Source of the DNA: Sialis fuliginosa | Taxonomy: Eukaryota > Arthropoda > Insecta > Megaloptera > Sialidae | NCBI GenBank assembly: GCA_961205875.1 | Contig: OY540809.1 | Span: 30,020,267 to 30,084,266 of the forward strand | Direction: 5' to 3' | DNA length: 64,000 nt | Shown here: piece after piece, positions 6,951 through 64,000 of the stretch | How the letters are laid out: the number at the start of each line of letters is the position of its first letter | How positions within the stretch are numbered: the first letter of the stretch is position 1 | Notes under the pieces: generated by a model | Databases searched by the model: none | Seen by the model: only the letters and a program-made list of their open reading frames with translations | What the model was told of the DNA's origin: nothing | Program-made: the position numbers and the translations under genes

Positions 6951-9012
6951 GCCCAGTCAAGGAAGCAGTGAAAAGTGATAAAAAGGGAAATTTAGAGGGC
7001 AAGCAATTTTATGATTGATTCTTATAGATTTTAAACCGGAGAATTCGAAAAAAATAACCCGGACAAGCGAAAAGTGGTGCAACACCCTTAAAAATGGGGT
7101 TTAAGGGTGAAAACCCCATTTCCAATCGTTTTTTCAATTTATCACAAAATCTATAGCGACGATGGTATATTTTTATCGTTGATATATGTTCAGGACACTC
7201 AGATGAATCGATTGTGACTACATATACTAAATTTGACCAAAAATTACCACTTTCAAAGGGCTTAAAAGACGTAAAAATGCATCTTTTCAGGAGAAATAGT
7301 TTAAAAATTAATAACTTTTGTTAAAATCATCCAAATAACTCGTAATTAGCGTCAAATTGTTCCTGAAGTTCCAAAGAATAATGACCAACCATAATTTAAA
7401 AAAATATTAATCGTATAACCAATAAAAATTGCCAATGTTTAAGGGTAAGTAACGTAATTTTTTGAAAAACTACATTTTTACTAAAATTTAAATAAAAACA
7501 CCAGGGTTAAATATTTTTTAGTGAAACGAATTGATTCTTATAAATTTTGAACCGAAGAATTCGAAAAAAATAACCCGGACTAGCGGAAAGTGGTGCAACA
7601 CCCTTAAAATGGGGTTTAAAGGTGAAAAGCCCATTTCCAACCGTTTTTACAAATTATCACAAAATCTAAAGCAACTATGGTATATTTTTATGATTGATAT
7701 ATGTTCAGAACACTTAGACGAATCGATTGTGACCACATATACTAAATTTGGCCAAACATTACGTCTTTCAAAGGGCTTAAAAGACGTAAAAATGCATCTT
7801 TTCGGGAGAAATAGTTTAAAAATTAAGAACTTTTGTTAAAATCATCCAAATGACTCGTGACTAGGCTCAAATTATTCCTGAAGTTCCAAAGAATAATGGC
7901 CAATCATAATTTAAAAAAATATTAGTAGTTTAACCAATGAAAATCGCTAATGTTTAAGGGTAAATGCATTTTTACGTCTTTTAAGCCCTTTGGAAGAGGT
8001 AATTTTTGGCCAAATTTAGTATATGTGGTCACAATCGATTCGTCTAAGTGTCCCGAACATATATCAATGATAAAAATATACTATCGTCGCTTCAGATTTT
8101 GTGATAAATTGAAAAAAACGGTTGGAAATGGGGTTTTCACCCTTAAACCTCATTTTTAAGGGTGTTGCACCACTTTTCGCTAGTCCGGGTTATTTTTTTC
8201 GAATTCTCCGGTTCAAAATCTATAAGAATCAATCATAAAATTGCTTGCCCTCTTAATTTCTTGCCAAAATGCTTCCTTTACTGGACTGAATCTATTATTT
8301 TGTTTGGAAAAATGTAATTTTTTTTAATTGTATACAACAAAAATTCAGTGTATTTCTAAGCGCACTTGTACCCGTTCTAATAATTGAATATTATTTTGGG
8401 GGGTCTCATTTTGTTTGTATGTACAAATAGAAGATATCTACCTTGGTTTCACTAAAAAATATTCAACCCTGGTGTTTTTATTTAAATTTTAGTAAAAAGA
8501 TAGTTTTTAAAAAATTTACGTTACTTACCGTTAAACATTAGCGATTTTTATTGGTAAAACTATTAATATTTTTTTAAATTATGGTTCATTATTATTCTTT
8601 GGAACTTCAGGAACAATTTGAGCCTAGTTACGAGTCATTTGGATGATTTTAGCAAAAGTTATTAATTTTTAAACTATTTTCCCCGAAAAGATATATTTTT
8701 AAGTCTTTTAAGCCCTCTGGAAGAGGTAATTTTTGGTCAAATTTAGTATATGTGATCACAATCGATTCGTCTGAGTTTCCTGAACATATATCAACCATAA
8801 AAATATACCATCATTGCTTTAGATTTTGTGATAAATTGAAAAAACGGTTGGAAATGGGGTTTTCACCCTTAAACCCCATTTTTAAGGGTGTTGCACCACT
8901 TTTCGCTTGTCCGGGTTATTTTTTTCTAATTCTCCGGTTCAAAATCTATAAGAATCAATCATAAAATTGCTTGCCCTCTTAATTTCCTGTCAAAATGCTT
9001 CCTTTACTGGAC
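6951..9012. mobile_element. 2-kb palindromic transposable element with nested internal repeats
   Basis: The outer ends are GCCCAGTCAAGGAAGC (6951) and its near-complement GCTTCCTTTACTGGAC (ending 9012), with TA on both sides. The same ~300-bp block ('aataacccggac...gtggtgcaacaccc') occurs four times: forward near 7020 and 7530, inverted near 7950-8240 and 8690-8980. A second copy of the right end (GCTTCCTTTACTGGACT) lies at about 8272-8288. The structure is thus a composite of overlapping palindromes. The TA flanks hint at Tc1/mariner-type insertion. Open frames in it are by-products of the repeats, and no transposase is seen. It sits in the divergent promoter interval between the hydrolase gene and Pde12. 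Confidence 0.75.
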
Positions 9013-9573
9013 TATAAACAATAATTCTTATTATCTTTGAAATAGTTTTATAAATTCAGTATTCTTATCGTCTTATCAATATTTATACTCATATTAGTGA
9101 TAACTACTGATAATACATTGAACAGTATTTATTATAAATAGAAATTACATTCGAAATAAAATTCAATTTAAAATACTTAAAACAGTAATTGTGAATGTAA
9201 AATAATAAAAATATTTTACTTTCAAGGACTGCATGATTAAAATTCAATATATTTATTTACGTATACTACATATTTATCCATGATACAATTATTATTATTG
9301 TATCATGATATTTATCCAATACATAATTGCTTTCTTAATTTTGAGAATTAGAGTAAATTGAATCGTATTTAAATTCAAATTTAAAACTATAACACGGAAG
9401 AGGGACTCGAATACGGAAATAACCTCTATGCCCTCTATATTAAATTATTTGTATCTGTGTTATATGTCAAATGTGACATTTCTGTGGCATCGCGGCGTGT
9501 CAATTTAATTATATTTGAGGTTAATGTAAAAAGTAATTAAAATTGAATTTAAGAATTAAATGTATTAAACTTT
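9013..9573 (+). other. Pde12 upstream region
   Basis: AT-rich. It contains a small perfect hairpin (atgatacaat...attgtatcat, about 9281-9308). A less AT-rich patch at about 9395-9510 is the likeliest core promoter region for Pde12, but no specific element could be identified. Confidence 0.35.
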
Positions 9574-12500
9574 ATGATGTTGTATTTCAGTTTACGTTTC
9601 TTTAGAACGATTTCTAATATTGGCGCAAGACGATTATTACATAAACATATTTTGAAAATGGAAAATGCATATTTTCAACATCTTGATGGATCAGATTCCT
9701 TTGAAATGATTTTTAAGTTAAAAAATCCCACATTGAAAATAGACAGAACTTTTAATTTTAAACGAAAAATTGAAGAAACAGTAGAAACATTTTTGGGTCG
9801 AGTTTCAGTTAATGTAGATAAAATACTTTCCAAGAAAAATAAAAAGAAAAAAGGTGAAAGTGAAAATACAAATGAAACACCTGAACTGTCTATAGGTTTA
9901 TATGAAAATGATAAACCAATTGATACAAGTACATCTTGTAAAAACGTTTTTATAAATGGAAAGAATATAAATTTAAAAATTCTCGATAACACTTTTAAAA
10001 TAATAATTAATTCACCGTGGATTAATAAATTATGTTTACCTTCATCGATATTAGCTGGGTTTCCTGTGTATCCAACTAAATTTGATGCTATTTTTACAGA
10101 AAAAGATATGAGTAATTTTACTTGGTATAAACATTGTCCTAATACAAAACAATGGCTTGAAGTTGGAAACCGATATTTGTATATTCCAACAACAAATAAT
10201 GTAGGTTGTAAGTTAAAACTTGTGTGTACACCACGAAACCAACTTTCATGTGGTCCAGAAACTGAAATCGAATCTAGTACACCTGTAGAGGCTGGACCAG
10301 GTGAATGTCCATTTGAAACAAGACATAAATTTACTTCAGAAAAATTAAACGGTAACAAGTAAGTTAGTTTATCAAACTTTAATAAGTAAATCGTATAATT
10401 CATATAATATCAGGTATGTTCTGTAATAATGGTTGCATATTTTTTTCAGTTTTAGAGTTGTTACGTACAACATATTAGCTGACTTGTATACCGATTCGGA
10501 TTACACAAGACAGGTTTTATTCCCATATTGTCCACCTTATGTTCTTTCAATGGATTATAGAAAACAGCTTCTACTGAAAGAAATAATTGGTATAATATGT
10601 TCAAGTTAGTTTTAAATTGGAATATTAACTTCATATTTTGTTTTACAGGGTACAATGGTGATATTATATGTTTACAAGAAGTTGATGGAAAAATTTTTGA
10701 CCTAGACTTATCACCTGTTCTTACTCAATTAGACTACAAAGGATGTTTTAGTAAAAAAGCTGGATCAGTTACAGAGGGACTTGGTTGTTTTTATAATTCA
10801 AAACGTTTTCGGGAAATTCATTTTGAAACGATAATTTTTGGCGAACAGCTTGAAACAAATCCAGTGTTTAGTGACATTTGGGATAAAATAAAATTGAATA
10901 AACCATTATGTGAAAGAATCAAACCAAGATCAACAGCATTACAAATAGTAGCATTAGAATCAATTGATAATCATGATCAAATTATATTAGTAGCTAACAT
11001 ACATTTGTATTTCCATCCGGATGCGGATCATGTTAGACTTCTACAGGGAGGACTTGCTATTTGTTATGTTGAACACGTTATTAAAGAATTGAAGCAAAAG
11101 GTACTTGACAATTATTTTCATTCATTTTTATTTTATTAGATTTTACAGGGGTCAAAACTGGTCAGTAAAATCAGTAAAAGTCAGTATTTTCTTACCCGGT
11201 CAGTTGAAGTCAGTTTTTTGGAAAAATGGTCAGTTTTGTCAGTTTTTTTGGGTTTGATACTCAAAGTTTTCACACCGGAGCCCTATTTATCGTGAAAAAA
11301 ATCACTATTTGACTTCAAAATGACACAGTTACCGTGAAAAATATATTCAAATTATAAATGATGTTCTATTTTGTACATAGACATGTAGTACTGGACAGCG
11401 TGATCCGCATTTTAAAATGGTCGTGAAGAAAAGAGAGATGGAGCGGGGTGAAACCATATTCTATCTTTTTCTTACACGCTGCCGTTATGAGCCTAGAAGG
11501 AGATAGAAGCTGTTTTAACCAAGCTCTGTCTCTGTGTCTACTTTCTTACATTCGTAAGATACGGATGGCGCAGTCCATGTCTTTATATCTATGATTTTGT
11601 ATTTGTGTTGTTTATTACCAACTTTTAGAAGATATTTTATGACATAATTGTAACGTATGTATACGTGAACATAATAAACAACATAATCTCACCCTAGCAC
11701 TGGCTATGCCAAGTTTGGTGAGAAAAATTACATACGTAGTGTATGTAAGTTATTCTTGGTCAAAGGTCGCGAAAATCGTTTTTTTACAAATATCTCGTAA
11801 ACTATTGGTTTTACGGCAATTTTAGTTATTATAAAATTTGTTCTTTAGCTAATTTTACATACAAAAAGTCCTGTACACAATTTCCGTAGGACCAATAGTT
11901 CTCGAGATATACGGCTGAGAAAAGTTAAGCGTTGTGATACATTCGATTCGACTCCACCATCTTTACAATACAATGCAAGGCGTGTTTTGTTTTATATCGG
12001 TTCAGATAGTCAGTAAAAGTCAGTTTTTTTAGATTTCTGTGTCAGTAAAATCAGTATTTTTGAACACTGAACTTGTTTCGACTCCTGGCATTTTATAATG
12101 AATATTTTTATATAATTTGTTGAACTTAGTTGTTATTGATTATAATATAGCATAGAAAGTTTGGCTAATATGGAGTGTATGGGTGTCCGCTGTCAGATTT
12201 ATTAATAATCACGTATATAGTTATTCAGAATAGAGTTGATGCTCTTATAATATACATGTTAACTGTACTTGGTTAGGGCAATTTATTGGGGCGAAATCGA
12301 GTTGATTAGTTTTGGGTTGGTTAGTTTTTGTTAATTTAAAAACAAGAATTCAATCTTCGCCACAACAAACTGTTTTAAAATATTCTACCAAATAAAATAA
12401 ACATGATGGTAAAAATGTGCTAGTCACGCATGCGCATCAACTCTATTAAAATTACTATATATGTGATTTTTAACAATTCTGACAGCGGACACTCATTTTT

Positions 12501-12994
12501 TTAACCAAAAGTGTTAATTAGTAATTATCATTTTAGAATATAAACAAAAGAATATCATTAATATTCTGTGGCGATTTTAATAGTACACCTGACTGTGGAA
12601 TATACCGTCTATTTAGAACTGGAAATGCACCTAGTGATTTAATTGATTGGTCTAGTAGTAAGTATTGAAAATTAATAATTAGCTCATGCTTAGTTGTAAA
12701 GGCAGCGTTAACACATCTTACTAATTTTTTTTAGATCCAGAAGAAGTAATTAAAGATTTATCATTAACTCAAAATATTTTAATGGAAAGTGCTTGCGGGA
12801 CACCTAAATATACAAACTATACAGCTGGATTCCGGGATTGTTTAGACTATATTTATTATCAAACTGATTCTTTTGTTGTGACACAAGTTGTACCGTTACC
12901 ATCTGAGGAAGAACTTTCAGCTAATGTAGCTTTACCTAGTGTAGTTTTTCCTTCAGACCACATTGCTCTTATTTCAGATTTAAAATGGACATAA
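9574..12994 (+). CDS. Pde12: 2',5'-phosphodiesterase 12, mitochondrial (EEP family)
   Basis: Five exons: 9574-10358, 10450-10589, 10649-11100, 12537-12657 and 12735-12994, total 585 aa (human PDE12 609). The N-terminus (MMLYFSLRFFRTISNIGARR) is Arg-rich without acids, as expected for a mitochondrial targeting signal. Residues ~40-255 are the family-specific N-terminal region. The exonuclease-endonuclease-phosphatase fold follows, with metal/catalytic motifs YNILAD (268-273), LQEVD (E319), GDFN (D472, N474) and SDH (H575). Known family role: 3'-5' removal of poly(A) from mitochondrial RNAs and cleavage of 2',5'-oligoadenylates. All catalytic motifs are present, so it should be active. Intron 3 (11101-12536) holds a hAT-like element and a MITE. 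AATAAA follows the stop at about 13018. The long antisense frame over exon 1 is a shadow. Confidence 0.94.
11146..12087. mobile_element. non-autonomous hAT-like element in Pde12 intron 3
   Basis: The ends are CAGGGGTCAAAAC and, read inward from the right, CAGGAGTCGAAAC, a hAT-type terminus. Flanking 8-mers are agatttta (11138-11145) and gcatttta (12088-12095), 6 of 8 matching, consistent with a decayed 8-bp duplication. Both subterminal regions contain many copies of GTCAGT/CAGTAAAA, like hAT transposase-binding repeats. No transposase frame. Confidence 0.65.
12166..12494. mobile_element. MITE, same family as 44044-44387
   Basis: The inner terminal repeats are GTCCGCTGTCAGA (left, about 12184) and TCTGACAGCGGAC (right, ending about 12490). 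The adjoining 'atcacgtatatag' and 'agagttgatg' are also inverted. The left terminus (taatatggagtg) matches the 44-kb copy, whereas the right terminus has diverged. Lies in Pde12 intron 3. Confidence 0.6.
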
Positions 12995-13192
12995 CATTTG
13001 TAAATAATTAGAATTGTAAATAAATAAATTTGTTATTTAATTTTTATATATTTTATCAAAACTTTATTTTTTCTTGATAACTGCGTTGATTGAAATAAAA
13101 AAATGATGATAATAATTAGACCTTTAACCTTTCATATCATGTGAAAACATTGAATATTATTACTTTTTGTTTGGATACATTTAACAAAAAGA

Positions 13193-14407
13193 ATGATTTT
13201 GTATTATTTGTTTTTTGTAATTTTGACAGTGGTTGTTTCACAAAAAATTGGAAAAAAATGTGAGTATATTACTGTTTCATCTTGTATGAATATGCCTTAC
13301 AACCGAACGATGTTACCTAATATACGAGGCCATACTAACCAAAATGATGCAGCTGAAGAGTTGAGAAGACTGTCACCGTTAGTTAGCTCAAATTGCCACT
13401 CGGATATACAATTTTTCCTATGTTCAATTTATGTTCCTGAATGTTCACCAACAAGAGAAGAAATGTTTCCATGTCGAAACCTATGTGAAAGGATAAGAAG
13501 CGACTGTGAGCCTTTAATCAACATGTTTGGTTATTCATGGCCTTCTGAAATGGACTGTTCTATATTTCCTGAAACTTCAGATAAATGCATTGATGTTCCT
13601 CAAAAAGATATACATCAACAGTGTCAGCCAATTTCAACGACATTATGTTATCGAGTACCTTACAAACAGACAATAACGCCTAACATTTTGAATCACAAGA
13701 ATCAAGCTCAAGCTTTTTTAGAACTGATCAAATTTGCACCTTTAGTGAAAATTAATTGCAGTTCAGAATTAAGATTGTTCTTATGTTCAGTATACTTTCC
13801 AAAATGCACATCAGAAAAAGGATTACATTGGCCATGTAAAAATCTCTGTTATAAAGTAAAATCAGAATGCACACCATTCTTAGATAAGTACAGAATTTCT
13901 TGGCCATCAAATCTTGATTGCTCCATGTTCCCTGACACGTCTGATATATGTGTAGATGAAACAGAGAATGAAATTTCTACAACTACAATTACACCAATCA
14001 TACAGAACAGGAACCATATAAAGTCGATATTAGATGATAGACGTTGTGAAGCACTAAGGACTCCGGTTTGTAAGCAGTTGCCATATAATCAAACATTGAT
14101 GCCGAATATCCTCAAACATCAGAGTCAAGAACTTGCTTCTTTAGAAATAATGCGGTTTCTTCCGTTAATACAAGTTAATTGTCATCGTGATTTTCAACTG
14201 TTTTTGTGTTCAATATATTTTCCTAAATGTACACCAGAGGGTAAAATATTGCTCCCATGTGAGAGCCTTTGCACAAAAGTTAGAGCTGGGTGTGAGCCGT
14301 TGGTTAATAGTAATGGATATTCGTGGCCTTCACAATTTAAATGTTCAATATTTCCTAATTCATCAGATCATCATTGTATTGAAAGTAATAATGTTATTAC
14401 AGTTTGA
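13193..14407 (+). CDS. secreted protein with three tandem frizzled cysteine-rich domains
   Basis: Intronless 404-aa frame with hydrophobic signal peptide at residues 1-17 (MILYYLFFVILTVVVSQ). Three complete frizzled-type CRDs follow: CRD1 C23-C132, CRD2 C144-C252 and CRD3 C285-C395. Each has the ten spaced cysteines and Fz hallmarks (PYN.T..PN, 'FLCS.Y.P.C', 'PC..LC..V', 'SWPS...CS.FP'). The CRD1-CRD2 linker is 11 residues. The CRD2-CRD3 linker is ~32 residues and Thr-rich (ISTTTITP). There is no transmembrane helix, GPI signal or netrin module. The CRD N-glycan site (YN.T) is kept in CRD1 and CRD3 but is YKQT in CRD2. CRD3 is closest by eye to the CRD of fz, which starts 547 bp downstream on the same strand. 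Known: Fz CRDs bind Wnt lipid. Inferred: an extracellular multivalent Wnt binder, possibly born by duplication of the fz CRD exon. Pde12 ends 198 bp upstream, and AATAAA occurs near 14563. Confidence 0.93.
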   Translation: MILYYLFFVILTVVVSQKIGKKCEYITVSSCMNMPYNRTMLPNIRGHTNQNDAAEELRRLSPLVSSNCHSDIQFFLCSIYVPECSPTREEMFPCRNLCERIRSDCEPLINMFGYSWPSEMDCSIFPETSDKCIDVPQKDIHQQCQPISTTLCYRVPYKQTITPNILNHKNQAQAFLELIKFAPLVKINCSSELRLFLCSVYFPKCTSEKGLHWPCKNLCYKVKSECTPFLDKYRISWPSNLDCSMFPDTSDICVDETENEISTTTITPIIQNRNHIKSILDDRRCEALRTPVCKQLPYNQTLMPNILKHQSQELASLEIMRFLPLIQVNCHRDFQLFLCSIYFPKCTPEGKILLPCESLCTKVRAGCEPLVNSNGYSWPSQFKCSIFPNSSDHHCIESNNVITV

Positions 14408-14930
14408 ATCCTTAGGATAATTTTTTTTTTTTAATGAAATGTAAATTCATTTATATTATTATTATTTATTTATATAGGTAATAGCAAAATAATTTGAAAA
14501 TTATGAATGTATTAATAATATTTTTATTAGTCGGTATGTATAAACTATTGAAATAACAATGTCAATAAATATATAAATTTAAATATTTAGGTGAAATTAA
14601 TACATACACAAATATTTTAATAAATATTAATATGGAATTCAAAAATTCAAAATTATGTATTAAAATAGCAAAGCTACAAACCAAATGTATAGGTATAGTA
14701 TTACAAAAATGTCAACAGGTGGCGCGACAGTCCCAATTTCATTTTATTTATCCTCTCTCTCTCAAATGAAAACATCGCTCTATCCCTTTTATTTACATTC
14801 ATTGTCACAGTGCGTCCATGGTTGTTAACGAGTGAAGTTCTGTGGTTGTGTTTGTGAACTTATAAATATCATTTTGGTGATGATGTAGAGTGGTACGATA
14901 ATTAAATATTCGTTTTTGTAATAACAAAGT
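14408..14930 (+). promoter_or_regulatory. 3' flank of triple-CRD gene and presumed fz promoter / 5' leader
   Basis: The first ~270 bases are very AT-rich and include AATAAA near 14563, suitable for 3'-end formation of the upstream gene. From about 14705 the sequence becomes less AT-rich (cagGTGGCGCGACAG, a CT-rich run at 14750-14765), which probably marks the fz promoter. No TATA box was recognised. The transcription start cannot be fixed. Confidence 0.4.
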
Positions 14931-14953: not shown

Positions 14954-16205
14954 ATGGCTAGCACGGATCGTTTGTATTTGGTCGTGTTGATCGCGTGTGC
15001 TGTGAGTAGTAGTGCGTACTCGCATACCATCGGCAAAGATCACCACACAGATGTTAGAATATCCGAAGAGGATATCTTACCACACCACGGAAGATGCGAG
15101 CCTATCACAATACCCTTCTGTATGGATATACAGTACAACCAAACGATAATGCCCAATATGCTCAAGCATACCAAACAAGACCAGGCAGGTTTAGAAGTGC
15201 ACCAGTTCTTTCCTCTGGTTAAAGTAAAGTGTAGTCCAGATTTACAGTTTTTCTTGTGTTCAGTTTATACCCCAGTGTGTACTATTTTAGAGAAACCAAT
15301 TCCTCCGTGCCAAAGTCTGTGTATAAGTGCTAGAAGAGGATGTGAGGCACTGATGAACAAATTCGGGTTTCCTTGGCCTCCTCAGTTAGAATGTTCAACG
15401 TTCCCAAATCCTCCGGAGATGTGTGTCGGTGATAATACGACCTCGTCTACATCTCCGCCTATTTTACCTGAAGCACCCACGTTAGGTGCTTATCCACCGG
15501 TTAATTTCAACCCCAATCTTCATGGAGTTGATTTTGATGGAAGGTTTCCTAATATGGACAGTGAATTTGGGGCGATTGGTGTTGGTGGAAGAGATTTCGG
15601 ATTTGTTTGTCCTGTACAGTTTAAAGTACCAAAAGGCTTGGACTACTCGTTACGGGTAGGAAATAAAGTAGAAAAAGATTGTGGCGCTCCATGTCATTCG
15701 ATGTTTTTCAGTGAGACCCAGAGAAAATTCGCTAGAATATGGGTCGGTGCTTGGGCTATTATATGTGTAGCCAGTTGCTTGTTTACTGTGATGACATTTA
15801 TGATTGATAAAGAGAGATTCAGGTATCCAGAAAGACCAATTATATTTCTATCTATCTGTTACTTGATGGTCTCTATAGCTTACGTGATAGGCTTTGTAGC
15901 AGGTGATACTATATCTTGTAGGGAGCCATTCCCTCCACCTGTTAAACTAGAAAGAATCAAAATGGTCAGCACGATTACACAAGGCACAAAGAATGAATTT
16001 TGTACAATAATATTTATGTTACTGTACTTCTTTAGTATGGCATCAAGTATTTGGTGGGTTATCCTTACATTGACGTGGTTCTTAGCAGCAGGATTGAAAT
16101 GGGGCCATGAAGCTATTGAAGCTAATTCTCAATATTTTCATCTAGCAGCTTGGGCTGTACCAGCTATCAAAACTGTAGCTATACTTGCCATGGGAAAAGT
16201 CGAAG
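14954..16205 (+). CDS. fz: Frizzled Wnt receptor, first coding exon (partial)
   Basis: Seven-pass Wnt receptor of canonical and planar-polarity signalling. This exon encodes 417 codons plus one base and ends at a GAAG|GTAGGC donor. ATG 14954 has a strong context (acgATGG); the frame is open further upstream but without an ATG. The signal peptide is about residues 1-22. The CRD spans C48-C157 with ten cysteines ([31 protein letters not shown]). A Gly/Pro-rich linker follows, then a second Cys cluster ([18 protein letters not shown]). TM1 is about 262-283, TM2 296-317, TM3 349-377, TM4 395-414. The CRD sequence is closest by recall to insect Fz (Fz1/7 type) rather than Fz2-4. TM5-TM7 and the C-terminal KTxxxW motif were not found in the remaining 47.8 kb. 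The gene therefore continues past a giant intron, or is truncated. Confidence 0.94.
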
Positions 16206-16499
16206 GTAGGCATATTGTTTTATTTTCATTATGTTTTATGTTTACCTAATAATAATCTTATTTCTCTTATTTATGAATTATATTCCTAGAAGGTTAAATT
16301 ACTTTTATAAAACACACTTCTTAATTTTTATAAACATACGATAGTCATATTAGTCATAATGAGATAACCTTTACTTAAAAAAAATAAGATAATATAATAA
16401 TTACAGTTTGAGTTAAAAATAACTTAATTTTTTAACTCTAAAAAGGATTTAAGTACAGATTAAAAGTAACCAATACTATCGATATTAAAAAAAATATTG

Positions 16500-21343: not shown

Positions 21344-21468
21344 TTAGTCTAAATAAAGAAATATATAACTAGTATTGTAAAATATAGTTATTTCTTATGA
21401 TTTGTACGAACATAAAAACAATTAATTATTTAATATTTACAAGCGAAATCATGAAATACGAAATATAT

Positions 21469-23343
21469 GGGGCATTCCACGCAAAATTTGCCACCAAATT
21501 TTTTTTTTCCGTAAAACATTTTTTTTATGGTTCAGCAGTCAAAAATATTCGATACGTATTTTTTTATTTCAATATGATACGCGTAGTTTTCGAGAAATTT
21601 TTTTTTTAATCCAAGTTTGTAAAAAAGTACTTTTTTTCAATCGTTAATACTGCGATTTCTAACGAAGATATAAAAAAAATTCCTGAACATGAAATGTGTG
21701 CCTTTTTCTCAGCTTTCGAATGAAGTATACTAAAACCTAATCTTATTATTTATTTAATGAAAAAAATTGAAAATTTATAAACAAATAGAATTTTTTCGAA
21801 TTTGGACATGATTTTTTTTATTTTTTTTTATTAAAAAAAGTAGCCAAAACGTTTTTCTTAATACTGGCAAAATTTCAGAGTGGAGAGGTAAATACTTACG
21901 GAGCAATGAATTTTTCAATCGCGGCTTGCACGCGCGAAGTGTACCGCAGCGCGACTTGCTCGGACTCGGGTTTGACTATAAGAGTTCCCCACGGATTTTG
22001 TTGCAATTCTATACATTAAAAATGAAGAAGGGATTTCATATGATTCTGAACTCTGAACTTGAATTCAATGTGATAATTTTATTTATTATCGTTAATATTG
22101 TACAATAAATTTTCATAATGTAAATTCTATAGCTTTTTCAAATATTTTAAAAACAAAATTTACTATTTATTACATTTGGATACACGTTTGACTATTCTTA
22201 ATATTTCAAAAATTTCACAGGAAGAAAAGACATTCATTTTCAATTTGAAGTCTTCGTTCGGTTCAATATTATAATATATAATATATTATAATATATAATA
22301 TTATAATGATTGTGTTCCTGATATGGTTTTGCATTTTTCAAAACGATTCTGAAGAAATTGTATATCACTGAAATATTAAGCAGAGAAGAAACTTTTTTAG
22401 CCCACTCACTCGTACAATTTAGTAATCCGGTCAAAAATGAAAAACCCCAAAAACCTGTTTAATGTAATCTAGAAGTAAATAAACATTGTAGAACATTTTT
22501 TCATACTCCAAAAGTTTATCCCGACCCCGAAATATCAAATTTAAAAAAATATACTTTTCAAACGCTTTCAATTGCGTGCCATGTTGCGTGACGTCATAAT
22601 TCAGTATTGAAATTTCAAACAATGCTTATATACATTTATATATTATATACATTAACGATTATAAATAAACTTATCACATTAAATTCAAGTTTCAACGTCA
22701 TTTCACATTTACCACCTTGAGTTCAGAATCATATGAAATCCCTTCTTCATTTTTAATGTATAGAATTGTAAAAAAACCATTTTTCGAGTATACGATTGTG
22801 TTTTACTCAGCGCGTAGGCGTGGAGAACTCTTATAGTCAAACCCGAGTCCGAGCAAGTCGCGCTGCGGTACGCTTTGCGCGTGCAAGCCGCGATTGAAAA
22901 ATGCATTGCTCCGTAAGTATTTACCTCTCCACTCTGAAATTTTTCCAGTATTAAGAAAAACGTTTTGGCTACTTTTTTCAATAAAAAAAAATAAAAAAAA
23001 TCATGTCCAAATTCGAAAAAATTCTATTTGTTTATAAATTTTCAATTTTTTTCATTAAATAAATAATAAGATTAGGTTTTAGTATACTTCATTCGAAAGC
23101 TGAAAAAAAGGCACACATTTCATGTTCAGGAATTTTTTTTATATCTTCGTTAGAAATCGCAGTATTAGCGATTGAAAAAAAATACTTTTTTACAAACTTG
23201 GGATTAAAAAAAAAAATCTCGAAAACTACGCGTATCATTTTGAAATAAAAAAATACGTATCGAATATTTTTGACTGCTGAACCATAAAAAAAATGTTTTA
23301 CGGAAAAAAAAAATTTGGTGGCAAATTTTGCGTGGAATGCCCC
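21469..23343. mobile_element. 1.9-kb palindromic transposable element
   Basis: Ends GGGGCATTCCACGCAAAATT (left) and its complement ending GGAATGCCCC (right), flanked by ATAT. The arms run about 21469-22078 and 22669-23343 and are near-identical, including a GC-rich patch 'gcgcgacttgctcggactcg'. The central ~590 bp is unique. No transposase frame of useful length. A long-TIR or fold-back-like non-autonomous DNA transposon; superfamily not determined. Confidence 0.8.
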
Positions 23344-23650
23344 ATATACTTTTTATTTTTTTATTCAATTTAAAAAACTTTAATAAAAAAATTAAAAACG
23401 TTACTGCGTAGAGAATATATTTTAATATACTGTTATTTTTTCAATTCTATTAATTAATATTTACAAGCGAAATCGTAGAAATATGAAATATACTTTATAT
23501 ATTTTTTATTTAATTTAAAAAACTTTAATCAAAAAATTAAAAACGTTAGGTCGTAGAGAATATATTCTTATTCCTATATTGTTATTTATTTTTTTTCAAT
23601 TCATTTAATTAATATTGACATGGACAATAGTGGAAATACAAAATTTAATT
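23344..23650. repeat. ~150-bp tandem repeat interrupted by the palindromic element
   Basis: Two units share 'ttcaatttaaaaaactttaat', 'aaaaacgtta', 'gtagagaatatatt', 'taattaatatt' and end 'aaatatgaaatata' or 'ggaaatacaaaat'. The end of a similar unit ('aatatttacaagcgaaatc...aaatata') also lies directly left of the palindromic element at about 21430-21468. The element therefore apparently inserted at a unit boundary. Confidence 0.6.
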
Positions 23651-48270: not shown

Positions 48271-48894
48271 TTAAAGGCTGACATGCCTTTACATGGATTT
48301 GGCTGATTATTTTAAGTCACATTCTATTAAACATTCAACCTGACCAAATATTAGCTTTCAAAAACTTAGTTTTCGAAAAAAAAAAAAATTTTTATTTAAA
48401 AAAAATAATTTTTTTTTGATAATATGTCAGTCGAATTTGATGGTACTTGAAATATATTATAGAGGTACTTATGACTCATCAGAGGTAATTTTATTATGAT
48501 CCTCTGTACATAATAAACCAGAAAAAAAAATTAATAAAATTTAAAAAATCAAAAAAGACCATGTTGTCTTCGGAGGGCAATCACAATTTTTTTATATATT
48601 ATACCTTGTATGTACCCAATCGTCTTTTTTGATTTTTTAAATTTTATTAATTTTTTTTTCTGGTTTATTATGTACAGAGGATCATAATAAAATTACCTCT
48701 GATGAGTTATAAGTACCTCTATAATATATTTCAAGCACCATCAAATTCGACTGACAGATTATCAAAAAACTATAAATTTTTGGAAGCTAATATTTGGTCA
48801 GGTTGAATGTTTAATAGAATGTGACTTCCAAAAAAATAATCAGCCAAATCCATGTAAAGGCATGTTTTGCATGCTTACCCGGCTACAGCCTTTA
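48271..48894. mobile_element. 624-bp palindromic element, short relative of 61346-62871
   Basis: The arms carry 'catgcctttacatggatttgg', 'aaacattcaacctgacc' and 'ggtacttatgactcatcagagg' inverted around a centre near 48585. The left end has lost ~20 bp (tagccgggtaagcatgcaaa) that is present at the right end and at both ends of the 61-kb copy. Confidence 0.75.
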
Positions 48895-60693: not shown

Positions 60694-61345
60694 ACAAAAT
60701 GACAAAATTTCTCTTAATCTATGACAATAACCATTTCGAGAGCAATTTTTTAATTAAAACCTACCCATATTTGTTTTATTATACATTTTCGCTACGATAA
60801 GTTTTTGTCGTATAAAACAATGCTTGCGTTTAATTATTTACATCTTAAGATTTATTTGAAAACACCCACATTCAAGAAACTTGGACACGCAACTTGCACG
60901 ACTAATTACACAGATATGCTATTATACGGTTAAATCTAGATCTGTGGTTATTGGCATCTCACCACACCCTGGCTCATCATAATTATTCATTCTCTGTGCA
61001 CACATTGAGGCGGTAGCGAATAAGAACCTCGTTATTAGCGGCGTTCGGTAATTATTGTAGGACCTGATTGGTTCAGATTTCGTTGACGTCTCAATTTGCA
61101 TAATTTTTATACCCGTATCAGTTTGACGGATTATTGCTAGCTATCGCTATTAAACTTATTTATTGGTTAGGTTATTGATTCGAATTGTTCTTAAACATTT
61201 TCTTGTTTATGTTTTTTTTTTCGTTTTGTACCCGGAGGTGATTTGAGTGGTTTTCATGGGGAGATAATTTAATGCAGTATTTAATACATATATGTATGTG
61301 GGCCGGGGTATTTTAGTTTTTAATGGTATTTTCTTAGTATTAATG
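60694..61345. other. intron backbone with a non-repetitive patch
   Basis: 60945-61150 is less AT-rich and single-copy in the window (ttagcggcgttcggtaatta, gacctgattggttcag). Possibly conserved non-coding DNA. No gene recognised. Confidence 0.3.
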
Positions 61346-62871
61346 GGTGTAGCCGGGTAAGCATGCAAAACATGCCTTTACATGGATTTGGCTGATTATT
61401 TTTTTGGAAGTCACATTCTATTAAACATTCAACCTGACCAAATATTAGCTTCCAAAAATTTATAATTTTCGAAAAAAAAATTTTTTTTGATTTTCAAAAA
61501 AAAATTTTTTTTTGATAATCTGTCAGTCGAATTTGATGGTGCTTGAAATATATTATAGAGGTACTTATGACTCATCAGAGGTAATTTTATTATGATCCTC
61601 TGTACATAATAAACTAGAAAAAAAAATTAATAAAATTTAAAAAATCAAAAAAGACCATGTTGTCTTCGGAGGGCAATCACAATTTTTTTATATATTATAC
61701 CTTGTATGTACCCAAACAACATATCAAAATCCCAAATTGATACAAAGGGTATAACATACTCGTATAAATTCGCATGCGGTCGTATCGGAGTGGCGCGAGC
61801 GTGGCGCGGGCGAGTTCAAGTGTGTTAATACTTTTAAAATATCTCTAATTTGTTGCTAAACAGGACTGGGCTAACCCAGAAGCATATCGAAAATTTGACG
61901 GGGCCCATAGTCTGACAAAAACAAAATATAGAGGCCGTAGCCGCGGGAATATATGGGAACTACTCCATTGAATTAATTTTACAATTTTTTTTCTCATAGG
62001 TTGCTTTTTAAGTAACAAAAAATCGCCCCAAATCGCCTATAAATGTTTATAATCGACTTTAGTAGTAACAAATCACATTTCCGCTGTGAACTAGCGAATC
62101 TTCTTCCATTAAAAACAATAGACAAGATTTATTTATTTTTTCTAAAAATGATCTGAGCAAAAATGAATATATTGAAGCACAGACATTTAGGGCGATTTAA
62201 TTTTACTTAAAAAGCAACCTATGAGAAAAAAAATTGTAAAATTAATTCAATGGAGTAGTTCCCATATATTCCCGCGGCTACGGCCTCTATATTTTGTTTT
62301 TGTCAGACTATGGGCCCCGTCAAATTTTCGATATGCTTCTGGGTTAGCCCAGTCCTGTTTAGCAACAAATTAGAGATATTTTAAAAGTATTAACACACTT
62401 GAACTCGCCCGCGCCACGCTCGCGCCACTCCGATACGACCGCATGCGAATTTATACGAGTATGTTATACCCTTTGTATCAATTTGGGATTTTGATATGTT
62501 GTTTGTACATACAAGGTATAATATATAAAAAAATTGTGATTGCCCTCCGAAGACAACATGGTCTTTTTTGATTTTTTAAATTTTATTAATTTTTTTTTCT
62601 AGTTTATTATGTAGAGAGGATCATAATAAAATTACCTCTGATGAGTCATAAGTACCTCTATAATATATTTCAAGCACCATCAAATTCGACTGACAGATTA
62701 TCAAAAAAAAATTTTTTTTTGAAAATCAAAAAAAATTTTTTTTTCGAAAACTATAAATTTTTGGAAGCTAATATTTGGTCAGGTTGAATGTTTAATTGAA
62801 TGTGACTTCCAAAAAAATAATCAGCCAAATCCATGTAAAGGCATGTTTTGCATGCTTACCCGGCTACAGCC
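61346..62871. mobile_element. 1.53-kb near-perfect palindromic (fold-back) element
   Basis: The arms at about 61346-62013 and 62207-62871 are almost identical in inverted orientation, with ~190 bp between them. Ends read TGTAGCCGGGTAAGCATGC inward from both sides. The arms also contain a GC-rich block (gagtggcgcgagcgtggcgc) and 'gggcccatagtctgacaaaa'. The outermost ~300 bp are shared with 48271-48894. No transposase frame. Confidence 0.85.
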
Positions 62872-64000
62872 TTTAAATTAAAAAAATTCTTGGTATTTGG
62901 AGATTAATAAAATATGTTACGTATACCATAAAAAAATTATAATTTGTAATTCTTGAGAAGTTCTATTAACGATTTGAAACGTACTCAGCTCACCTTGCTT
63001 TTTACTACATGTACCTACACAAAATAACGCAAACATTTTTTACTTTCTTATACCATGTATATGAAATATACATTAGTATAAGTAAGTATTGTTAAACTGA
63101 TTTTTTTCGAAATCCGGATTTTGATGGTATTATCCATTTTGACTTGATGATGTATGTGTGTCTGTCGGTCTGTAAGCGCTGTAACTCAAATACGACAAAT
63201 CGTAGAAGGATGAAATTTTATAATCAAGATTAATTTTTGTCTGGGAAGAAAATGTCCTATTTTTGAAAACGATCTTTCAATAGAATACAGATGTTTACCT
63301 ACGTCAATTTTTGAATTTTTCGAATTACAGTGCGAAATAGAAAAAAATGGTCAAGTTAAAAATTGTAGGTAATATTAATATCTATAATTTATGTTTTATT
63401 CATTTGTTCGAAACAACAAATTTTTGAAGAAAAAAAAGTTATTATAATTTAAATGATTCATAACAGAGAAGAAATATCTGCCATGAGTGTCATGGGACTT
63501 TCTTATACGTATTACAGAGATTGAACAGTGGGTTTGTCTAAATAATTATTTCTGACTAAATCATAAATGTTGGAAAAAATGTATGAGGAATAAATTATAG
63601 ATAAGAACATACTCAACATTTTTTATCTAAAACATTTTTTTTTCAAAAAGAATTCGAAAATTGAAAAATTGATAAAAGTAAACATCTGTTTTCGGTTGTT
63701 ATTACGTTTAAAAATATTCATTTGATACATAATGTAGAGAATAATATTATCTAAAGTTTATGTCTCATTAATTTTATTCTATCTTTTATTAGTCTGTCAG
63801 AAATATGTTTTAATAAAATAAGAATCACGTTCACTGTCAGGATTACGTATAAGAAAGTCCTGTGGCTCCCATGGCAGATATTTTTATATATGAGTATCTT
63901 TATTTTTCCCGTTCATCACGTATTTGATATCTTGAAAATTACTATAGGCATATAGAAATAACTAATTCTTAGCACATTAACAATTTAAATAGTAATTTTT
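62872..64000. other. intron backbone / repeat DNA at window end
   Basis: 63110-63220 has 'ccattttgacttgatgatg...gtctgtcggtctgtaagcgctgtaa', resembling an interspersed repeat. Two motif pairs are inverted relative to each other: 'cagatgtttac' 63286 / 'gtaaacatctg' 63679, and 'atatctgccatg' 63474 / 'catggcagatat' 63871. They are in A-B-A'-B' order, so it is not a simple hairpin. No gene seen. Confidence 0.35.

What the first reader, a model, noticed from the sequence alone, without database searches (positions are those of the whole stretch)
13193..14407. Intronless gene for a secreted protein built from three tandem frizzled CRDs
Seen directly: a signal peptide followed by three complete ten-cysteine frizzled CRDs (C23-C132, C144-C252, C285-C395), then a stop, with no transmembrane, GPI or netrin module. 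Known: Fz CRDs bind the Wnt lipid and index-finger regions. Vertebrate sFRPs carry one CRD plus a netrin domain, and Drosophila lacks sFRPs. A soluble three-CRD protein is an unusual architecture and would be a natural multivalent Wnt trap or carrier. The frame is undamaged over 404 codons with all 30 cysteines kept, which argues for selection and not a pseudogene.
Basis: partly seen in the sequence, partly recalled or inferred. Interest (0 to 1): 0.88.

Follow-up and report, generated by a model that had tools for sequence, protein, structure and literature searches.

The report
Secreted protein with three Wnt-binding domains
Right next to a normal Wnt-receptor (frizzled) gene sits a small extra gene for a probably secreted protein made of three copies of the receptor's Wnt-binding domain, which most likely captures or carries Wnt signals outside the cell; a similar four-copy protein is known in sea urchins.

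Summary
The 404-codon frame at 13193-14407 (+) encodes three Frizzled cysteine-rich domains (Pfam Fz, E 1.2e-87) with 30 cysteines in register. A signal-like N-terminus precedes them; no netrin, transmembrane or GPI-like segment was found. Correction: CRD2 ends at C253, not C252. The frame is far beyond chance, and differences among the CRDs concentrate at third codon positions, so it evolved under constraint. It lies between a PDE12-like gene and a frizzled gene of the Fz1/2/7 class whose CRD also has no intron, so tandem copying of a frizzled CRD could explain it. That origin is inferred: the three CRDs are no closer to the window's fz than to human FZD7. Of 27 lipid-groove cells, 25 stay hydrophobic or aromatic, so Wnt or fatty-acyl binding is the best guess. 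It is not an sFRP (no netrin domain). Nearest in architecture is sea urchin sFRP-1 (four CRDs plus Ig, a secreted Wnt antagonist; PMC5778778), so tandem-CRD secreted proteins are a known kind. What may be new is one in an insect-like genome, where sFRPs are reported absent (PMC6162966). Host species, expression and Wnt binding were not tested.

The parts
13193..14407 (+). Intron-free coding frame of the three-CRD protein (404 aa plus stop)
13193..13240 (+). Presumed signal peptide, residues 1-16 (cleavage after S16 is my reading, from no predictor)
   Evidence: KD15 2.76; helix, block pLDDT 88 for residues 1-10, in an otherwise poor model
13259..13588 (+). CRD1, residues 23-132, 10 Cys, NRT glycosylation site after second Cys
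13589..13621 (+). Linker 1, 11 residues
13622..13951 (+). CRD2, residues 144-253, 10 Cys; the site after the second Cys is lost (KQT)
13952..14044 (+). Linker 2, 31 residues, with a short Thr run
14045..14377 (+). CRD3, residues 285-395, 10 Cys, NQT site after second Cys
   Evidence: moderate fold model matches FZD CRDs
14378..14407 (+). Nine-residue C-terminal tail and stop codon
14564..14569 (+). AATAAA poly(A)-signal match 157 bases past the stop (another at 14619)
   Evidence: consensus match only
13019..13024 (+). AATAAA match behind the upstream PDE12-like gene (others at 13023 and 13094)
   Evidence: consensus match only
14954..16205 (+). First coding exon of the neighbouring frizzled receptor (Fz1/2/7 class), CRD at 15095-15424 without intron; GT donor at 16206
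9553..12994 (+). Upstream neighbour, PDE12-like gene; joining of the exons is inferred
   Evidence: PDE12-like N domain at 9553-10359; the last piece, 12782-12991, matches Exo_endo_phos below its cut-off (19.8 of 24.5 bits); 10561-11136 had no Pfam match

Best explanation
A real protein-coding gene, probably born by tandem copying of the intron-free CRD-coding part of a frizzled gene of the Fz1/2/7 class (most simply its downstream neighbour), with further internal duplication to three CRDs. The product enters the secretory pathway, forms three disulfide-bonded Fz CRDs and is released. Each CRD keeps most of the hydrophobic groove that takes the Wnt palmitoleoyl chain. The protein would therefore bind Wnt outside the cell and either compete with Frizzled for it (antagonist) or shield and carry it. 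Shown: the frame, three CRDs with all cysteines, past constraint, no membrane anchor found, and position beside fz. Inferred: transcription, secretion, descent from the neighbouring fz, Wnt binding, and effect on signalling.
For: Three Pfam Fz domains. 32 of 111 columns are invariant among the four CRDs, 10 of them Cys. Each of the three CRDs ranks FZD2 or FZD7 chains first against PDB sequences: 114.7, 106.8 and 110.8 bits, against 77.1, 81.9 and 82.1 for sFRP3. Differences are highest at codon position 3 in 6 of 6 pairs. NG86 dN is 0.38-0.48; dS is 2.9 and 3.0 in two of six pairs and gave no value (saturated) in four. In neutral simulations matched to about 59% nucleotide identity, 5, 2 and 5 of 5000 copies of CRD1, 2 and 3 stayed open and 0 kept ten Cys. 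At nine groove positions named for FZD7 in PMC6333880 (passages), 25 of 27 cells are hydrophobic or aromatic: P88, L89 and Y106 identical in all three; L134 and M135 hydrophobic in all three; F86 is L, F, F; V92 is S, I, V; F138 is F, Y, N; F140 is Y, I, Y (CRD1, 2, 3). CRD3 model hits FZD CRD structures, best E 1.4e-7. Precedent: a secreted four-CRD protein without netrin antagonises Fzl5/8 signalling in sea urchin (PMC5778778, passages).
Against: No expression data. The three CRDs are no closer to the window's fz (48, 48 and 55 of 110 for CRD1, 2, 3) than to human FZD7 (48, 50 and 46 of 104), so recent descent from the neighbour is not shown. The acyl head-group position (Q in fz, FZD2 and FZD7) is R, K, R in CRD1, 2, 3; CRD1 has S at V92 and CRD3 has N at F138, so affinity or ligand may have changed. 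The signal peptide could be an accident of T-rich DNA. The CRD3 model is only moderate (pLDDT 67.7; matches at TM about 0.6, rmsd about 5 A) and the full-length model is poor (41.8).
Confidence: 0.6

Rival explanations
1. The protein is secreted and CRD-like but no longer binds Wnt: it holds another lipid or ligand (free fatty acid, sterol, another secreted protein), or has a species-specific role such as in a secretion.
For: All three CRDs replace the head-group glutamine by a basic residue, and two have a polar residue in the groove. CRD1-3 are set apart from fz, FZD2 and FZD7 by a supported branch (98/99), about 0.9 changes per column long in the drawing.
Against: 25 of 27 groove cells and the full cysteine frame are kept. 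All three still rank FZD2 or FZD7 first.
Confidence: 0.2
2. The frame is not a gene of its own but upstream exon(s) of a longer transcript, spliced into fz or joined to an upstream exon that supplies the true N-terminus.
For: Acceptor-like site whose AG ends at 13229, inside the supposed signal peptide, among the four best-scoring of the scan, and the best-scoring donor-like site of the scan at 13260 (score 8). The fz start lies only 546 bases downstream in the same direction.
Against: In-frame stop after CRD3, AATAAA matches at 14564 and 14619, and AATAAA matches behind the PDE12-like gene. The fz exon has its own ATG and a hydrophobic start (KD15 2.18, under my 2.4 threshold). The 13260 donor lies inside the first Cys codon of CRD1. 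Only 1-5% of comparable ATGs are this signal-like.
Confidence: 0.1
3. A recently silenced pseudogene, still intact because too little time has passed.
For: No expression evidence is available here, and dN/dS between old paralogues does not report on present selection.
Against: The frame is open over 404 codons with 30 of 30 Cys kept although the CRD copies differ at 41-43% of nucleotides.
Confidence: 0.08

Closest known systems
Sea urchin (Strongylocentrotus purpuratus) sFRP-1
   Same: Signal sequence, several tandem ten-cysteine Fz CRDs, no netrin domain, no transmembrane segment (PMC5778778, passages).
   Different: Four CRDs and an Ig domain; CRDs reported as related to sFRP3/4. Here three CRDs, no Ig match, and scores nearest to FZD1/2/7.
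Platynereis FzCRD-1
   Same: Signal peptide plus Fz CRD without 7TM and without a whole netrin domain (PMC4669655, passages).
   Different: One CRD only, 208 aa, CRD clusters with sFRP3/4, and a possible netrin remnant.
sFRP1/2/5 and sFRP3/4
   Same: Soluble Fz CRD proteins that act on Wnt.
   Different: One CRD plus netrin domain; here three CRDs and no netrin match. sFRPs are reported absent from insects (PMC6162966, passages).
Frizzled 1/2/7 class receptors, including the neighbouring fz
   Same: CRD sequence and cysteine spacing; best-scoring class for all three CRDs and for fz.
   Different: No seven-pass membrane region in the three-CRD protein.

Membership tests
Fz CRD (Pfam PF01392) | Domain match above the curated cut-off with ten cysteines | tested here: met
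   290.2 bits against cut-off 32.1, three stretches; 10 Cys in each CRD
Frizzled receptor | Seven-pass Frizzled membrane region (PF01534) | tested here: not met
   No PF01534 match in the three-CRD protein, present in the neighbouring fz; no TM-like segment after residue 25; no match to the fz exon's membrane part between 14408 and 14950 (tblastn, E up to 10)
sFRP | C-terminal netrin (NTR) domain | tested here: not met
   Fz is the only significant family; nine residues after the last Cys
sFRP | Single CRD | tested here: not met
   Three CRDs
Secreted tandem-CRD proteins (kind of sea urchin sFRP-1) | Signal peptide, two or more Fz CRDs, no netrin, no TM | tested here: met
   signal peptide judged by hydrophobicity only
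Sea urchin sFRP-1 orthologue | Ig domain between CRD3 and CRD4; CRDs related to sFRP3/4 | tested here: not met
   No Ig match; sFRP3 scores 77-82 bits against 107-115 for FZD2/7. Sea urchin sequence itself was not compared
Fz1/2/7 class (as source of the CRDs) | CRD closest to FZD1, FZD2 or FZD7 | tested here: inconclusive
   Ranks first for all three CRDs, but by only 7.9-11.8 bits over the next class; the tree had only FZD2, FZD7 and fz as comparators and no outside root
Wnt-binding protein | Direct binding to lipidated Wnt | not testable with these tools
   Groove residues only

The most novel reading that the evidence does not exclude
A lineage whose ancestors lost sFRPs re-invented a soluble Wnt regulator from its own frizzled gene, convergently with echinoderms. 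Because FZD5/7/8 CRDs pair across a shared U-shaped lipid cavity (PMC6333880, passages), two of the three tethered CRDs could pair within one molecule and wholly bury a Wnt acyl chain. The protein would then be a solubilising Wnt carrier and not only a trap, with the third CRD free for a second contact, and it might be co-regulated with the adjacent fz.
Probability: 0.15. Interest if true: 0.75.

Novelty: new variant of a known kind. Interest (0 to 1): 0.5.

Why it matters
Insects are described as having no sFRPs (PMC6162966, passages). If the host is an insect, a soluble multi-CRD protein encoded beside fz would be a natural candidate for buffering or carrying extracellular Wnt there. It would also be another case, besides echinoderm sFRP-1, of frizzled CRDs multiplied into a secreted protein. 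Binding and knock-down tests are simple.

Tried and rejected
Rejected: chance ORF; netrin, Ig or 7TM module in the protein; remnants of the fz membrane region behind CRD3 (tblastn of the fz exon against the window, E up to 10, gave itself, the three CRDs and two weak matches elsewhere, E 6.4 and 8.7); further CRD copies in the window (an HMM of the four CRDs, E up to 10, hit these two frames only). Retroposition is not needed, because the fz CRD itself has no intron; it was not separately excluded.

Led nowhere: viral-contig scans with the protein (no pattern match) and with the CRD alignment A1 (39 pattern matches, 0 confirmed); genome-contig scan (10 pattern matches, 0 confirmed). These collections do not aim to hold animals, so the misses say nothing about insects. 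Rfam gave 0 matches and ARAGORN 0, so no taxon clue. Later fz exons were sought by recalled motifs: searches showed none, and one search gave four frames with weak generic hits that I judged not to be fz. Bacterial promoter scan is not informative for an animal gene; repeat scans near the gene gave nothing that I used. The full-length fold was poor. YN00 failed for 5 of 6 pairs; the sixth gave 0.50/1.36. The neutral simulation used a single hit rate whose printed example had 54.7% identity, somewhat below the observed 57-59%; I repeated it over three CRDs and three hit rates.

Papers: 10 searches were answered. None of the listings showed an insect three-CRD secreted protein, but searches found no paper at all, searches listed only 15 of 46 and 15 of 20, and the library holds only CC0, CC BY and CC BY-SA papers, so this is weak evidence of absence. 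Of the papers cited I saw passages, not whole texts. PMC4068752 (passages) did not give the CRD-side residues that I sought. The prawn 'two Frizzled domains' paper (PMC3555924, passages) reports a 610-aa Frizzled whose two domains I take to be CRD plus membrane region.

Full report
The observation. The plus-strand frame 13193-14407 starts with ATG and runs 404 codons to one stop. Pfam finds the Fz domain three times (E 1.2e-87, 290 bits against a cut-off of 32) and no other significant family. The spacing equals that of the neighbouring fz CRD, with one extra residue before the last Cys of CRD3. In 30 first-order Markov copies of the window the longest stop-free stretch was 189 codons, against 417 here.

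Secretion and anchors. Residues 1-19 are the strongly hydrophobic segment (19-residue mean 1.98); after residue 25 the best mean is 1.03, and nine residues follow the last cysteine. This fits a signal peptide and no transmembrane or GPI anchor. No signal-peptide predictor was available. The segment is T-rich and contains a good acceptor-like sequence whose AG ends at 13229, so it could in principle be an intron end misread as a signal. Of 2175 ATGs in the window (both strands), 314 have 30 open codons; 17, 8 or 3 of these, this one among them, are signal-like at thresholds of 2.1, 2.4 or 2.76. The fz start itself scores 2.18. I keep the signal reading at about 85% (my estimate).

Selection. 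Identities among CRD1, CRD2, CRD3 and the fz CRD are 44-50% in protein and 57-59% in DNA. Differences at codon positions 1, 2 and 3 run, for example, 47/27/61 (CRD3-CRD1) and 35/28/72 (CRD3-fz), and position 3 is highest in all six pairs. NG86 gives dN 0.38-0.48, with dS 2.9 and 3.0 in two pairs and no value (saturated) in four; YN00 worked for one pair only (CRD1-fz, 0.50/1.36). In neutral simulations with mean identity of about 59%, 5, 2 and 5 of 5000 copies of CRD1, 2 and 3 stayed open and none kept ten cysteines. The copies have therefore been constrained for most of their history. Whether the gene is constrained today needs sister species.

Surroundings. Upstream lie a ribosomal L13 gene (the mitochondrial form by my reading), an M1/LTA4H-like gene on the minus strand, and a PDE12-like gene whose last open stretch ends at 12994; that last piece matches its Pfam family only below the cut-off. 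Downstream, a frizzled exon starts at 14954 with its own hydrophobic start, a CRD at 15095-15424 and part of the membrane region, and ends at a GT donor at 16206. AATAAA matches at 13019, 13023 and 13094 and at 14564 and 14619 are compatible with separate transcripts. The fz CRD has no intron, so tandem copying of that stretch would give an intron-free frame without retroposition (inference).

Relationship. Against PDB sequences each CRD scores FZD2 or FZD7 first (CRD1 114.7, CRD2 106.8, CRD3 110.8 bits), then FZD4 (CRD1, CRD2) or FZD8 (CRD3) 7.9-11.8 bits lower, with sFRP3 at 77-82 and sizzled at 61-76. The window's fz scores 181 with FZD2. In a six-row tree CRD1-3 are separated from fz, FZD2 and FZD7 by a branch with support 98/99 (the three-row label was clustered as tightly in 47 of 500 shuffles, as expected with so few rows). 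Eight columns are shared by the three CRDs only; for two of them only fz could be compared. The CRDs are not closer to the local fz than to human FZD7 (48, 48 and 55 of 110 against 48, 50 and 46 of 104, for CRD1, 2 and 3). Descent from the neighbouring fz rests on position, not on sequence.

Mechanism. FZD7 lipid-cavity residues, and the FZD2 head-group glutamine, named in PMC6333880 (passages) were mapped to the alignment by counting. Pro88, Leu89 and Tyr106 are identical in all three CRDs. Leu134 and Met135 stay hydrophobic. Phe86 is L, F, F; Val92 is S, I, V; Phe138 is F, Y, N; Phe140 is Y, I, Y (CRD1, 2, 3). That is 25 of 27 cells hydrophobic or aromatic. The head-group glutamine is R, K, R. 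The glycosylation site after the second Cys, which PMC4669655 (passages) reports in all Frizzled receptors, is kept in CRD1 and CRD3 and lost in CRD2. I infer retained lipid or Wnt binding with possible shifts in affinity. A fold model of CRD3 (pLDDT 67.7, four-row alignment) matches FZD CRD structures (best E 1.4e-7, TM about 0.6, rmsd about 5 A; the 50 rows shown of 80 are all FZD or sFRP3 CRDs, alone or in complexes). The full-length model is not usable (pLDDT 41.8).

Known relatives. PMC5778778 (passages) describes sea urchin sFRP-1: signal sequence, four tandem CRDs with an Ig domain between CRD3 and CRD4, no netrin, antagonist of Fzl5/8-JNK signalling. It counts at least 15 novel Fz-CRD genes in that genome and at least four related genes in a sea star. 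PMC4669655 (passages) describes CRD-only genes in Platynereis. [quoted passage not shown] So the kind is known, and this is a new variant with three CRDs, no Ig, nearest to Fz1/2/7. Ten answered paper searches listed no insect case, in an open-licence library and with some lists cut.

Verdict. Interest 0.5.

Noticed in passing
window 13207-13261: An acceptor-like tract (AG ends at 13229) and a donor-like site at 13260 lie in and just behind the signal-peptide region; either chance or a sign of another splice form.
   Followed up: partly
window 21426-23386: Large palindrome: 568-nt arms, 95% complementary, 825 nt apart, in the region behind the fz exon; looks like a mobile element or inverted duplication.
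   Followed up: no
window 61340-62876: Nested near-perfect inverted repeats (372 and 321 nt arms, 99%), with 94-95% similar copies at 48367-48785, suggesting a recently active repeat.
   Followed up: no
window 6986-9013: Cluster of direct and inverted repeats of 173-545 nt, 84-97% alike, between the M1/LTA4H-like gene and the PDE12-like gene.
   Followed up: no
window 16206-64000: No later fz exon was recognised by recalled motifs, so the fz intron may exceed 47 kb or the remaining exons escaped the search.
   Followed up: partly
CRD alignment column 37, in 13259-13588, 13622-13951 and 14045-14377: All three CRDs carry a basic residue where fz, FZD2 and FZD7 carry the glutamine near the acyl head group.
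   Followed up: partly
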